From Streptomyces catenulae (lineage in GTDB: Bacteria; Actinomycetota; Actinomycetes; Streptomycetales; Streptomycetaceae), in contig NZ_JODY01000047.1 of assembly GCF_000718015.1 (NCBI RefSeq), positions 1 through 38,702 of the forward strand: a stretch of DNA of 38,702 nt, given 5' to 3'. Below are positions 4,021-9,162 of the stretch, piece by piece. The notes beneath the pieces were generated by a model that was given only the letters and a program-made list of their open reading frames with translations, was not told the origin of the DNA and made no database searches. A program made the position numbers and the translations under genes. Positions within the stretch are counted from its first letter, which is position 1; each line of letters begins with the position of its first letter.

Positions 4021-4039
4021 TTAGGTTAGGCTAAGCTAA
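4021..4039. promoter_or_regulatory. Iron box (DmdR/IdeR operator) before the ornithine supply operon
   Basis: TTAGGTTAGGCTAAGCTAA matches the IdeR/DmdR consensus TWAGGTWAGSCTWACCTWA at 18 of 19 positions. It lies 71 bases before the isochorismatase-like gene. In Streptomyces the iron-loaded DmdR1 repressor binds such sites and blocks transcription when iron is plentiful, so the downstream run of genes should be expressed only under iron shortage. Confidence 0.88.
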
Positions 4040-4109
4040 GTCCATACCGGTTCGGCGGTGGGTCTGTGCACTCGTGTGCCGTTGAGGGAGCCATCAGGGA
4101 GGGAACGCC

Positions 4110-4775
4110 ATGGGTCTGCCGGTCATCGGCTCCTACCCCATGCCCGACGGCTCCACCCTGCCGCCGTCCCGCCCGTCCTGGGTGGTCGAACCCCACCGCG
4201 CCGCGCTGCTGGTCCACGACATGCAGAACCATTTGGTGGGGCAACTCCCGGCGGACAGGGCGCCGCTCCCCGAACTCGTCGGCAACATCGCGGCGCTCCG
4301 CGCCCTTGCCACGGCTCTCGGTATGCCGGTCGTCTTCACCGCCGAACCGGCCGCCCAGCAGGCAGGTAGGCGCGGTCTCGCCGAGGACATCTGGGGTCCG
4401 GGCGTCGGCGACGGGGGCGACGCCGCCATCGTCGCGCCCCTGGCGCCCCGGCCGGGTGAGTATGTGCTGGCCAATGTCCGTCACAACGCCTTTCTCCGCA
4501 GCCACTTGGGTCGACTGCTGCGTTCGGAGCGGCGCGACCAGCTCATCGTCTGCGGGGTCCACGCCCATCTCGGTGTCCTCCTGACAGCCGCAGACGCCTT
4601 CATGAACGACATCCAGCCCTTCGTGGTCGCCGACGCTGTCGCCGACCTCTCCGCCGAGGAGCACGCCATGGCCCTGCGGTGGACCGCCCGCACCTCGGTG
4701 GTGTGCACGACCGGGTCCCTGCTGCGCGACCTGCGTCGGAGCCGGGTGTCGCCAAACCTCCGCGAGGACGCGTGA
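4110..4775 (+). CDS. Isochorismatase-family protein with altered catalytic residues
   Basis: A 221-residue protein aligned along its whole length to siderophore isochorismatases (EntB N-domain, DhbB, VibB, PhzD): LLVHDMQNHLVG, PVVFTAEPAAQQ, EDIWGPGVG, RDQLIVCGVHAHLGVLLTAA and DAFMNDIQPFVVADAVADLS. The catalytic Asp of HDMQ is present. The family lysine in VKWRYSAF is replaced by Asn (VLANVRHNAF), and the TAQP glutamine by Glu (TAEP). No aryl carrier domain follows. No genes for isochorismate synthase, DHB dehydrogenase or a DHB-activating enzyme occur in the window, so a normal catechol role is unlikely. The start has GGGAGGGAA upstream. It is the first gene behind a strong iron box and is followed after 82 bases by argC, probably on one transcript. 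The true substrate is unknown. Confidence 0.82.
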   Translation: MGLPVIGSYPMPDGSTLPPSRPSWVVEPHRAALLVHDMQNHLVGQLPADRAPLPELVGNIAALRALATALGMPVVFTAEPAAQQAGRRGLAEDIWGPGVGDGGDAAIVAPLAPRPGEYVLANVRHNAFLRSHLGRLLRSERRDQLIVCGVHAHLGVLLTAADAFMNDIQPFVVADAVADLSAEEHAMALRWTARTSVVCTTGSLLRDLRRSRVSPNLREDA

Positions 4776-7040: not shown

Positions 7041-7969
7041 GGGGCGCGGGGACGACCCGGACGGAGGCGCCGGCCGCGATACCGGACAGCCGCGGCCTGC
7101 CGTGGCGGGAGGAGCTCCGGGGCCGGACGGTCGTCGTCAAGTTCGGCGGCAACGCCATGGTGGACCCGGCGCTGCACCGGACGTTCGCCCAGGACGTGGT
7201 CGAGCTGCGCCACGCGGGCCTGCGGCCCGTCGTCGTGCACGGCGGCGGGCCGCAGATCAGCGCGCTGCTCGACCGGCTCGGCCTGGAGGTGCGCTTCGAG
7301 GCCGGGCTGCGGGTGACCACACCGGAGACGATGGACGTCGTGCGCATGGTGCTCACCGGCCAGGTGCAACGCCAGCTCGTCGAGGCGGTCAACGCCCACG
7401 GGCCGTTCGCCGTCGGTCTGTCGGGGGAGGACGCGCACACGATGACCGCCGTACGGCGCCCGGCCCGGGTGGACGGCCGTCCGGTGGACATCGGCCAGGT
7501 CGGCGAGGTGGTGGCCGTGGACACCGCCCTCCTCGACGCGCTGCTGGAGCAGGGCCGCATCCCCGTGGTCTCGCCCGTCGCCCGCGGCGAGGACGGTCAG
7601 GTGTACAACGTCAACGCCGATCTGGCGGCATCGGCCCTGGCCACGGCGCTCGGGGCGGAGCATCTGGTGGTGCTGACCGATGTCGAGGGCCTGTACGCGA
7701 ACTGGCCGCACAGCACCGAGGTGATCGCCCGTATGACGGCCGCCGAACTGGACGCGCTGCTGCCGGGGCTGGCGAGCGGCATGCTCCCCAAGATGGAGGG
7801 CTGCCTGCGGGCGGTCCGGGCCGGGGTCGGCCGGGCGCGGGTCGTCGACGGCCGGGTGCCGCACGCGCTGCTGCGCGGCGTGTTCACCGAGGACGGACCC
7901 GGCACCACCGTGGTGCCGGACGCGAGGCCCGGGTCCGACGGGCCCGGTGAGAAGGAGGACGGCGCGTGA
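7037..7969 (+). CDS. argB: N-acetylglutamate kinase
   Basis: ArgB, 310 residues, phosphorylates N-acetylglutamate, normally the arginine-inhibited step. Family motifs: VVVKFGGNAM near the N-terminus, VVVHGGGPQISALLDRLGL, and the nucleotide-binding region VYNVNADLAASALATALGAE with VLTDVEGLYANW. The C-terminal SGMLPKMEGCLRAVRAGV is conserved. The ATG at 7037 overlaps the argJ stop (ATGA). The N-terminal helix before the first strand, which carries part of the arginine site in sensitive enzymes, is present but divergent-looking (GTTRTEAPAAIPDSRGLPW), so feedback behaviour may differ from the housekeeping copy. That is inference and needs an alignment or assay. Confidence 0.93.
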   Translation: MRGAGTTRTEAPAAIPDSRGLPWREELRGRTVVVKFGGNAMVDPALHRTFAQDVVELRHAGLRPVVVHGGGPQISALLDRLGLEVRFEAGLRVTTPETMDVVRMVLTGQVQRQLVEAVNAHGPFAVGLSGEDAHTMTAVRRPARVDGRPVDIGQVGEVVAVDTALLDALLEQGRIPVVSPVARGEDGQVYNVNADLAASALATALGAEHLVVLTDVEGLYANWPHSTEVIARMTAAELDALLPGLASGMLPKMEGCLRAVRAGVGRARVVDGRVPHALLRGVFTEDGPGTTVVPDARPGSDGPGEKEDGA

Positions 7970-9162
7970 CCGCCGACAGCACGACCCCGCTCACCGACCG
8001 CTGGCGCGCGGCGGTGATGGACACGTACGGCACTCCCCCGCTGGCCCTCGTCAGGGGCGAGGGCAGCACCGTGTGGGACGAGGACGGCCGCACCTACACG
8101 GACTTCACCGGCGGGATCGCCGTCAACGCCCTCGGGCACGCCCATCCGGCGCTGGTCGAGGCCGTACGGGAGCAGGCCGCCCGGCTCGGGCATGTGTCGA
8201 ACCTGTTCGTCGCGGAGCCGCCCGTCGCGCTCGCGGAACGGCTGCTGAGATTGCTGGGCAGGCCGGGGCGGGTGTTCTTCGCGAACTCGGGCGCCGAGGC
8301 GGTGGAGGCCGCCTTCAAGATCGCCCGCCGGACCGGGCGCCCGCACCTCGTCGCGGCCGACGGCGGGTTCCACGGACGCACCATGGGGGCGCTGGCCCTC
8401 ACCGGACAGCCCGCCAAGCGGGAACCGTTCCTGCCGCTGCCCGCGGAGGTGACGCATGTGCCCTACGGCGACACGGCCGCTCTGCGCGCGGCGGTCACCG
8501 CACGCACCGCAGCGGTCGTCCTCGAACCGCTTCAGGGCGAGGCGGGGGCCGTCCCCGCGCCGGTGGGCTATCTGCGGGCCGCCCGCGAGATCACCCGGGC
8601 CACCGGCAGCCTGCTGGTCCTGGACGAGGTGCAGACCGGGATCGGCCGCACAGGCCACTGGTTCGCGCACCAGGCGGAGCCGGGCGCGGAGCCCGATGTG
8701 ATCACCCTCGCCAAGGGCCTGGGCGGTGGCCTGCCGATCGGCGCCACGGTCGCCTTCGGCGACGCCGCACGGCTGCTGACGCCCGGTCAGCACGGCTCCA
8801 CCTTCGGCGGCAACCCGATCGCGTGCGCGGCGGGGCTCGCCGTCCTGGAGACCGTCGAGAAGGAGGGGCTCCTCGCGCACGTTGCGCGGGTGGGCGAGCG
8901 GCTGCGCCGCGGCATCGAGGCGTTGCGGCACCCCCTGGTCCGCGAGGTGCGGGGCGCGGGGCTGCTCCTGGGCACCGTCCTCACCGCGCCGGTCGCCGCG
9001 CGGGTCCGGTGTGCGGCGCAGGACGCCGGGTTCCTGGTGAACGCGGCGGCTCCGGACGTCGTCCGGCTGGCGCCCGCCCTCACCCTGCCGCAGGAGCAGG
9101 CCGACGCCCTGGTGGCGGCGCTGCCCCCGATCCTCGATGCCGCGTCCGGCGACGGCGCCTGA
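7966..9162 (+). CDS. argD: Acetylornithine aminotransferase
   Basis: ArgD, 398 residues, a class III PLP aminotransferase that makes N-acetylornithine from the semialdehyde and glutamate. The PLP lysine is Lys250 in ITLAKGLGGGLPIGA; other landmarks are FANSGAEAVEAAFKIAR, FHGRTMGALALTGQ, LLVLDEVQTGIGRTG and GSTFGGNPIACAAGLAVLE. The GTG at 7966 overlaps the argB stop, and a strong GAAGGAGGA lies 7 bases upstream. It is the last gene of the run and is followed by a perfect hairpin shared with the convergent GNAT gene. It is not an ornithine or lysine epsilon-aminotransferase by motif or context, though the families are close. Confidence 0.94.
   Translation: MTADSTTPLTDRWRAAVMDTYGTPPLALVRGEGSTVWDEDGRTYTDFTGGIAVNALGHAHPALVEAVREQAARLGHVSNLFVAEPPVALAERLLRLLGRPGRVFFANSGAEAVEAAFKIARRTGRPHLVAADGGFHGRTMGALALTGQPAKREPFLPLPAEVTHVPYGDTAALRAAVTARTAAVVLEPLQGEAGAVPAPVGYLRAAREITRATGSLLVLDEVQTGIGRTGHWFAHQAEPGAEPDVITLAKGLGGGLPIGATVAFGDAARLLTPGQHGSTFGGNPIACAAGLAVLETVEKEGLLAHVARVGERLRRGIEALRHPLVREVRGAGLLLGTVLTAPVAARVRCAAQDAGFLVNAAAPDVVRLAPALTLPQEQADALVAALPPILDAASGDGA

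What the first reader, a model, noticed from the sequence alone, without database searches (positions are those of the whole stretch)
4021..9162. Iron-box-controlled ornithine operon (argCJBD) beside the coelichelin cluster
A near-perfect iron box precedes an isochorismatase-like gene followed by argC-argJ-argB-argD with overlapping starts. Coelichelin carries three ornithine-derived residues. A dedicated precursor operon under iron control would let the cell make ornithine in iron shortage independently of arginine regulation. I do not recall such genes in the S. coelicolor coelichelin locus. Seen: box, gene order, overlaps. Inferred: dedication to siderophore supply.
Basis: partly seen in the sequence, partly recalled or inferred. 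Interest (0 to 1): 0.82.

Follow-up and report, generated by a model that had tools for sequence, protein, structure and literature searches.

The report
Iron-switched, arginine-blind ornithine supply operon
Beside the genes for the iron-scavenging molecule coelichelin, this soil bacterium carries a second set of ornithine-making genes that appear to be switched by iron instead of arginine, and whose control enzyme seems to have lost parts that let arginine shut it down, so the cell could feed the scavenger even when arginine is plentiful.

Summary
A near-perfect iron box (4021-4039) precedes an isochorismatase-fold gene and argC-argJ-argB-argD, with 4-bp overlaps between the arg genes, next to a coelichelin-type cluster. 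The genome has a separate housekeeping argCJBD-argR operon with an ARG-box motif. Across relatives the control differs: iron box within 300 bp upstream in 48 of 60 siderophore-side operons and 0 of 20 housekeeping ones; ARG motif in 0 of 60 and 19 of 20. So a dedicated, iron-controlled ornithine operon is well supported, though untested at the bench. Going further: 41 of 199 congeneric genomes have a siderophore-side ArgB. The 50-row ArgB clade that includes the window lacks a glutamate of the arginine feedback site and has an altered or missing N-terminal helix, while most catalytic residues stay. ArgB is the part kept: many loci carry argB alone, three with argC remnants, and the 16 clearest siderophore-type ArgJ copies all sit beside it. 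Best reading: an iron-controlled acetylglutamate kinase freed from arginine feedback feeds ornithine to hydroxamate siderophores. The isochorismatase-like protein has lost the catalytic lysine and is something else.

The parts
4021..4039 (+). iron box (DmdR1/IdeR-type operator), 70 bp before the first start codon
   Evidence: 1 mismatch; 0 in 100 shuffles; a box stands mostly 54-93 bp upstream of the same gene in relatives
4110..4775 (+). isochorismatase-fold protein with altered active site (function unknown; not an isochorismatase by its residues)
   Evidence: PF00857; nearest PDB kin VibB/PhzD/EntB type; catalytic Lys and Gln replaced in 47 of 47 orthologue rows
4858..5892 (+). [quoted passage not shown]
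   Evidence: TIGR01850 384 bits, cut-off 233.6
5889..7040 (+). argJ, ornithine/glutamate N-acetyltransferase
   Evidence: NF003802 441 bits, cut-off 351
7037..7969 (+). argB, acetylglutamate kinase lacking features of arginine feedback
   Evidence: TIGR00761 244 bits, cut-off 151; residues; tree; model
7966..9162 (+). argD, acetylornithine aminotransferase
   Evidence: NF002874 618 bits, cut-off 457
9280..9804 (-). convergent GNAT acetyltransferase, distantly like the acetyltransferase domain of N-acetylglutamate synthase and without the kinase-like domain
   Evidence: the genome's own synthase is at C59; a homologue stands near argB/argD in many relatives
9901..9923 (.). perfect palindrome AAGTAAGGC-TCCTT-GCCTTACTT upstream of the GNAT gene, where some relatives have an iron box
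   Evidence: sequence; boxes before the GNAT gene in L040, L041, L045, L046
10315..10530 (-). MbtH-like protein of the coelichelin cluster
   Evidence: PF03621
10636..10654 (+). iron box between mbtH and the esterase gene
   Evidence: 1 mismatch
10783..11886 (+). siderophore esterase (CchJ-like)
   Evidence: PF00756; enterochelin-esterase-like, below NCBIfam cut-off
11937..13688 (-). ABC exporter (CchI-like)
13627..24570 (-). coelichelin-type NRPS (CchH-like)
   Evidence: 3 A, 4 C/E, 3 PCP domains
24592..26379 (-). ABC transporter (CchG-like)
26383..27441 (-). ferric-siderophore binding protein (CchF-like)
27526..28404 (-). ABC ATPase (CchE-like)
28445..30403 (-). FecCD permease (CchC/CchD-like, one frame)
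30751..32103 (-). ornithine N5-monooxygenase (CchB-like), the enzyme that would consume the ornithine
   Evidence: PF13434 5e-109
32364..33311 (+). formyltransferase (CchA-like)
   Evidence: PF00551, PF02911

Best explanation
The operon is a siderophore-dedicated ornithine supply line. When iron is short, a DmdR1/IdeR-type repressor leaves the box at 4021-4039 and argC-argJ-argB-argD is made together with the coelichelin genes, turning glutamate into ornithine for CchB and the NRPS. It has lost both forms of arginine control: the ARG boxes are replaced by an iron box, and its acetylglutamate kinase (ArgB), normally the feedback-inhibited step, has lost part of the N-terminal helix and an arginine-site glutamate, so it should work when arginine is plentiful. 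ArgB is the essential part: in many species the operon has shrunk to argB alone, with the housekeeping operon presumably supplying the other steps. Shown: sequence, gene order, conservation, residue changes, tree, loss series. Inferred: iron response, arginine insensitivity, flux into the siderophore.
For: Second, ARG-boxed operon with argR in the same genome. Iron box at up to 3 mismatches within 300 bp upstream of the first operon gene: 48 of 60 siderophore-side, 0 of 20 housekeeping; ARG motif 0 of 60 and 19 of 20 (the 20th is cut at a contig end). In loci without the isochorismatase-like gene the box mostly stands directly before argC or argB. Siderophore biosynthesis genes in the held DNA: 42 of 60 versus 0 of 17 housekeeping loci. 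In 56 aligned siderophore ArgBs the catalytic and substrate K, G, P, R, N, N, D are kept in 56 and the second K in 55 (one gap); the LLE-F glutamate is there in 20 of 20 housekeeping but 7 of 56 siderophore-side copies. Tree: 50-row clade, 100/99 support, with no row that has that glutamate, and seven basal siderophore rows that keep it. Model: two-part N-helix in an intact-site relative, only the short second part in the window ArgB. Siderophore-side ArgB in 40 of 199 genomes (41 with one cut at a contig end); clear siderophore-type ArgJ (77% or more) in 16 of 199, each beside that ArgB. argC remnants before argB-only genes in L048, L069, L072. dN/dS 0.20-0.34 for arg genes.
Against: No expression, binding or enzyme data. 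12 of 60 upstream stretches had no box; a closer look puts one across the 60 bp my script skipped in four, further upstream in three (L072, L170, L178), one is at a contig edge (L193), and four have none (L068, L073, L179, L197). The glycine-loop Asn is His in 9 of 56 siderophore ArgBs and four further rows read KCGGST, so those may be altered enzymes. Other C-lobe residues of the region (DGR Arg, H, last G and T of GxGT) are kept in 54-55 of 56, and the helix Leu, Pro and Trp align in about half (26, 27, 24 of 56). The window ArgB keeps the LPW part of the helix. A review seen in passages (PMC10464499) says arginine inhibition is not strictly tied to the hexamer. 18 of 42 CchJ-positive genomes have no such ArgB, so it is not required for coelichelin. 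Models are shallow (mean pLDDT 69 and 75).
Confidence: 0.74

Rival explanations
1. Iron-controlled extra copy only: the operon raises ornithine by gene dosage under iron shortage, but its ArgB is still inhibited by arginine; the N-helix and glutamate changes are drift.
For: The window ArgB keeps part of the N-helix and the GxGT loop; seven basal siderophore ArgBs keep the whole arginine-site signature, and six of them have an iron box upstream (the seventh, L193, is cut at a contig edge).
Against: The glutamate is absent from every row of the 50-row clade while most catalytic residues stay; argB, the feedback step, is the gene kept alone.
Confidence: 0.17
2. A decaying duplicate arginine operon that hitch-hikes with the siderophore cluster.
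For: argC, argJ and argD are lost or fragmentary in many relatives; some isochorismatase-like copies look broken or partial (L057, L178); the GGN Asn of ArgB varies.
Against: dN/dS 0.20-0.34 for argC, argJ, argB and argD, conserved catalytic residues, conserved iron box, selective retention of argB.
Confidence: 0.04
3. The operon serves another product or reaction (for example general arginine supply in iron shortage, or a substrate handled together with the isochorismatase-like protein) rather than siderophore ornithine.
For: The isochorismatase-like gene is unexplained and sits first in the operon; it also occurs without arg genes.
Against: The operon's enzymes stop at ornithine chemistry: the genes between box and argD are the five named and none is argF, argG or argH; linkage to siderophore clusters that use ornithine; housekeeping operons lack that linkage.
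Confidence: 0.05

Closest known systems
Coelichelin (cch) cluster of Streptomyces coelicolor
   Same: NRPS domain count, ornithine monooxygenase, formyltransferase, MbtH, uptake and export genes, iron boxes (the S. coelicolor side is recalled)
   Different: The S. coelicolor cluster, as recalled, has no arg genes; its argCJBDR is SCO1580-1576 (PMC3293853, passages). Here an arg operon under its own iron box adjoins the cluster.
Polyoxin cluster PolN/PolP (PolP complements a S. coelicolor argB mutant; PMC4029187, passages)
   Same: A second arginine-pathway gene inside a biosynthetic cluster for precursor supply
   Different: Antibiotic, not siderophore; the word feedback does not occur in that text; iron control not mentioned in the passages seen.
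Stenothricin and lunaemycin clusters with ArgC/ArgD homologues for L-ornithine (PMC9866976, passages)
   Same: Dedicated ornithine genes in an NRPS cluster
   Different: Not a siderophore; no iron box described in the passages seen.
Arginine-sensitive hexameric acetylglutamate kinases (Thermotoga, Pseudomonas)
   Same: Same enzyme and most catalytic residues
   Different: Arginine-site glutamate absent and N-helix reduced in the window copy.
Arginine-insensitive E. coli acetylglutamate kinase (PMC3329491 and PMC10464499, passages: dimer, arginine-insensitive)
   Same: Short N-terminus in argB-only relatives such as L189, L194, L195
   Different: Here derived inside a lineage whose basal members keep the arginine-site signature.

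Membership tests
Acetylglutamate kinase (ArgB) | TIGR00761 cut-off and catalytic/substrate residues | tested here: met
   243.9 vs 151.3 bits; K, G, P, R, N, N, D, K kept 55-56 of 56 aligned rows, window included; GGN Asn kept in the window, His in 9 of 56
Arginine-sensitive (hexameric) acetylglutamate kinase | N-terminal kinked helix (EALPW/Y type) | tested here: not met
   Window reads SRGLPW; first half of the helix not predicted; EALPW in 20 of 20 housekeeping copies
Arginine-sensitive (hexameric) acetylglutamate kinase | C-lobe glutamate of the arginine site (LLE-F; its role is recalled) | tested here: not met
   Gly in the window; E in 7 of 56 siderophore-side, 20 of 20 housekeeping
Arginine-sensitive (hexameric) acetylglutamate kinase | Inhibition by arginine | not testable with these tools
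   Needs enzyme assay
DmdR1/IdeR iron-box regulon | 19-bp operator in the promoter region | tested here: met
DmdR1/IdeR iron-box regulon | Repressor binding and iron-dependent transcript | not testable with these tools
ArgR (ARG-box) regulon | ARG-box motif before the operon | tested here: not met
   0 of 60 siderophore-side vs 19 of 20 housekeeping; the housekeeping motif agrees with S. coelicolor argC ARG boxes in PMC5839063 (passages)
Coelichelin biosynthetic cluster | Three-module NRPS with ornithine hydroxylase and formyltransferase | tested here: met
Coelichelin biosynthetic cluster | Product is coelichelin | not testable with these tools
Isochorismatase (EntB/PhzD/DhbB type) | Catalytic Lys and substrate Gln (PhzD numbering and roles recalled) | tested here: not met
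   Lys replaced in 47 of 47 and Gln by Glu in 47 of 47 orthologue rows; K and Q in 53 of 53 other rows of the family
N-acetylglutamate synthase (for the GNAT gene) | NCBIfam cut-off | tested here: not met
   47.2 vs 344 and 27.8 vs 180 bits; the copy at C59 passes

The most novel reading that the evidence does not exclude
A complete arginine-blind entry module for siderophores: an iron-controlled ArgB without the feedback site plus an iron-controlled GNAT acting as N-acetylglutamate synthase without the arginine-binding domain, so both arginine-controlled steps of ornithine synthesis are bypassed together, with the isochorismatase-like protein as a further, new enzyme of the module. Selection has shrunk the operon stepwise to its control point, argB.
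Probability: 0.35. Interest if true: 0.76.

Novelty: new variant of a known kind. Interest (0 to 1): 0.64.

Why it matters
Siderophore producers must draw ornithine from a pathway that arginine shuts off. This would show how evolution solves that: move the pathway to iron control, take the brake off its control enzyme, then discard the copied genes except that enzyme. It offers a natural series of feedback-intact and feedback-lost acetylglutamate kinases, useful for ornithine and arginine production, and makes the long-assumed precursor-supply role of duplicated primary-metabolism genes testable with one gene. argB next to an iron box could also mark hydroxamate siderophore clusters in genome mining.

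Tried and rejected
Looked for a single-operon or ordinary-arginine-control explanation: rejected. Considered decay: judged unlikely on dN/dS and residues; apparent stops in argD of L041 and L092 were only the C-terminal end. Considered the first gene as a real isochorismatase giving a catechol part: rejected on the active site and because coelichelin has no catechol (recalled). Considered ascertainment (I chose most loci by ArgB): checked by an ArgJ search; the 16 rows at 77% identity or more all lie beside the siderophore ArgB; a 17th (G051, 74%) does too, but its score is close to housekeeping rows at 73-74%, so it is not counted. Isochorismatase-anchored loci show no argC, argJ or argD without argB except L056/L084, which end inside the operon. 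The ArgC version of this check did not complete, and no ArgD version was made. Promoter and terminator consensus scan of 3900-10700 found nothing. Presence outside the genus: 6 of 394 class-level genomes at E <= 1e-124, the window's own among them, all in its genus (1 of 137 genera); remoter forms would be missed. Literature: no paper on an arg operon or acetylglutamate kinase in a coelichelin or other Streptomyces siderophore cluster turned up in the listings (open-licence PMC only, best-ranked rows only; passages read); subscription papers were not searchable.

Rows left out or kept: 4 of 60 siderophore ArgBs (L176, L179, L183, L186, KCGGST loop) were not in the residue counts but are in the tree and were read; L042 (cut by a contig end) is but not in the tree; L197 groups with housekeeping rows and L073 is a long branch, yet both stay in the counts of 60; L075 and L178 are identical over the compared part of ArgB. 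L070 (its contig has the length of L045's) was not used. The loci are related, so counts are not independent events.
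Full report
What is there. The window is the contig G000:C47 of a 7.05-Mb genome; the nearest named loci are from Streptomyces, so the genus is inferred. At 4021-4039 stands TTAGGTTAGGCTAAGCTAA, one mismatch from the iron-box consensus used; up to 3 mismatches give 11 strand-matches in the window and none in 100 shuffles, and 27 in the whole genome. It is followed by an isochorismatase-fold gene (4110-4775), then argC, argJ, argB, argD (4858-9162) with three 4-bp overlaps; all four arg proteins pass NCBIfam cut-offs. An 82-bp gap without a box separates the first gene from argC. 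The neighbour is a coelichelin-type cluster: NRPS with 3 A, 4 C/E and 3 PCP domains, ornithine monooxygenase and formyltransferase, MbtH, uptake and export genes.

Is it the only arginine operon? No. ArgC has two matches in the genome. The other lies in argC-argJ-argB-argD-argR (L009 9193-14234; identities 73, 70, 67, 70%; argR passes NCBIfam cut-offs). Upstream of it stands CGTATAGTCATGC with a TTGCATA element before it, found in all 19 housekeeping argC upstreams that could be read, of 20 loci, and agreeing with the S. coelicolor argC ARG boxes listed in PMC5839063 (passages).

Control has been exchanged. Iron box at up to 3 mismatches within 300 bp of the first gene: 48 of 60 against 0 of 20; ARG motif at up to 2 mismatches: 0 of 60 against 19 of 20, the last being cut by a contig end. 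Of the 12 without a box in that count, L189, L190, L194 and L195 have one across the 60 bp that my script skipped, L072, L170 and L178 have one further upstream, L193 is at a contig edge, and L068, L073, L179 and L197 show none. In loci without the isochorismatase-like gene the box mostly stands straight before argC or argB, so it is the arg genes' box too.

Linkage. MbtH, NRPS, CchB or coelichelin genes lie in the held DNA of 42 of 60 loci and 0 of 17 housekeeping 20-kb stretches. Of the 18 others, 14 have CchE-like ABC ATPases (44-60%; one of 17 housekeeping stretches has a 33% hit), L179 only a weak CchF hit, L196 nothing, and L042 and L173 are short contigs. Iron boxes: none in 340 kb around housekeeping operons. 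Siderophore-side ArgB occurs in 40 of 199 genus genomes at 72% identity or more, 41 with G157 whose copy is cut at a contig end; the context of each was fetched. CchJ, a coelichelin marker, occurs in 42 of 199; 24 of 42 also have this ArgB, against 17 of 157 others (odds ratio 11, Fisher p 1.5e-9; species are not independent). So 18 of 42 CchJ-positive species do without it.

Feedback. Acetylglutamate kinase is the arginine-inhibited, rate-limiting step where ornithine is made by the cyclic route (PMC10464499, passages); arginine binds between the N-terminal helix and the C-lobe (PMC3329491, passages). Housekeeping copies read EALPW in the helix and LLEIFTDEG[IV]GT in the C-lobe in 20 of 20. 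In 56 aligned siderophore-side copies most catalytic and substrate residues are kept (55-56 of 56), with the GGN Asn changed to His in 9; the LLE-F glutamate remains in only 7 (Gly 38, Ser 6, others 4, one gap). The helix motif is altered or missing in most: its E, A, L, P and W align in 15, 16, 26, 27 and 24 of 56, in a loosely aligned stretch. L189, L194 and L195 start about ten residues before the KFGG motif. Against the reading, other residues near the site (the DGR Arg, the H, the last G and T of GxGT) are kept in 54-55 of 56. That the glutamate contacts arginine is recalled from the literature on the Pseudomonas and Thermotoga enzymes. The tree puts siderophore ArgBs together (57 rows, 100/89; L073 is a long branch at their base, L197 falls with housekeeping rows); the seven rows with the intact site are basal to a 50-row clade (100/99) that includes the window and has no row with the glutamate. 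AlphaFold models: basal L083 has helices 7-16 and 20-24, the window ArgB only 23-27 (mean pLDDT 69 and 75, 18 sequences, no oligomer modelled). The window copy is an intermediate: partial helix, GxGT kept, glutamate gone.

Reduction to argB. Of 55 loci not at a contig edge, 18 have full argC, argJ and argD; 26 have none of the three; 11 are mixed or carry remnants. L048 reads through an ArgC N-terminus into ArgB; L069 and L072 keep ArgC 1-41 and 1-58, and L072 also ArgJ 344-383. Because most loci were chosen by ArgB, I searched ArgJ as well: the 16 rows at 77% identity or more, of 199 genomes, each lie beside the siderophore ArgB; a 17th at 74% does too but overlaps housekeeping scores. ArgB is thus the retained gene. 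dN/dS between the window and L040, L041, L092, L170 is 0.20-0.34 for the arg genes (argD for two of the four only), 0.27-0.29 for the first gene (three loci) and 0.35-0.42 for the GNAT gene.

The other two genes. The first gene's product belongs with the EntB/PhzD/VibB proteins (best E 2e-52), yet in 47 of 47 orthologue rows the catalytic Lys is replaced (Asn 41, His 4, Ser 1, Gly 1) and the Gln is Glu, against K and Q in 53 of 53 other rows; the Asp is kept in 44 of 47 (catalytic roles recalled). It also stands behind an iron box in siderophore loci without arg genes, often with an amidohydrolase (PF07969) and a 76-aa protein. It is probably a conserved enzyme of unknown reaction, not an isochorismatase. 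The convergent GNAT gene is a distant relative of the acetyltransferase domain of N-acetylglutamate synthase (2r8v, 8e-10), below family cut-offs, and distinct from the genome's own synthase at C59; in L040, L041, L045 and L046 an iron box precedes it, in the window a palindrome. A synthase role is a guess.

Mechanism, with likelihoods. Dedicated iron-controlled ornithine supply: about 0.9. Arginine-insensitive ArgB in the window: about 0.7; in argB-only forms: about 0.85. GNAT as partner synthase: about 0.4.

Known or new. Duplicated arginine genes for precursor supply in biosynthetic clusters are known (polyoxin PolP, PMC4029187, passages; stenothricin/lunaemycin, PMC9866976, passages). I found no report of an iron-controlled or feedback-freed acetylglutamate kinase in a siderophore cluster in the listings. 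I rate it a new variant of a known kind. In a class-wide draw 6 of 394 genomes (the window's own and five others, all of its genus) had such an ArgB at E <= 1e-124.

Noticed in passing
L044, L047, L050, L052, L058, L066, L071, L073, L074, L081, L082: Isochorismatase-like gene behind an iron box in siderophore loci with no argCJBD behind it (L073 has a diverged argB about 6 kb away), followed by a convergent 76-aa protein without Pfam match and, in all listed but L052 and L074, an Amidohydro_3 protein; perhaps siderophore processing. L047/L071, L052/L074 and L058/L081 look like the same loci.
   Followed up: partly
window 9901-9923: Perfect 9-bp-arm palindrome with 5-bp spacer upstream of the GNAT gene, at the place where some relatives have an iron box; could be a remodelled operator.
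   Followed up: partly
L073 16021-16926 (-): Streptomyces albicerus: a fast-diverged ArgB (69%) beside formyltransferase and ornithine monooxygenase genes, on a long tree branch.
   Followed up: no
L059 (G000:C2:158000-177999): Second siderophore-like locus in the same genome with two iron boxes, an isochorismatase with the usual Lys and Gln (45% to the window's), NRPS-like and uptake genes.
   Followed up: no
window 37225-38610: 461-aa protein with a Scabin-like domain (PF22596) at its C-terminus; and a peptidase S41 protein at 34607-36013.
   Followed up: no
L176, L179, L183, L186: Siderophore-side ArgBs with a changed glycine loop, KCGGST, in a four-row clade with 100/99 support; nine further rows have His for the loop Asn. 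Activity of these may differ.
   Followed up: no
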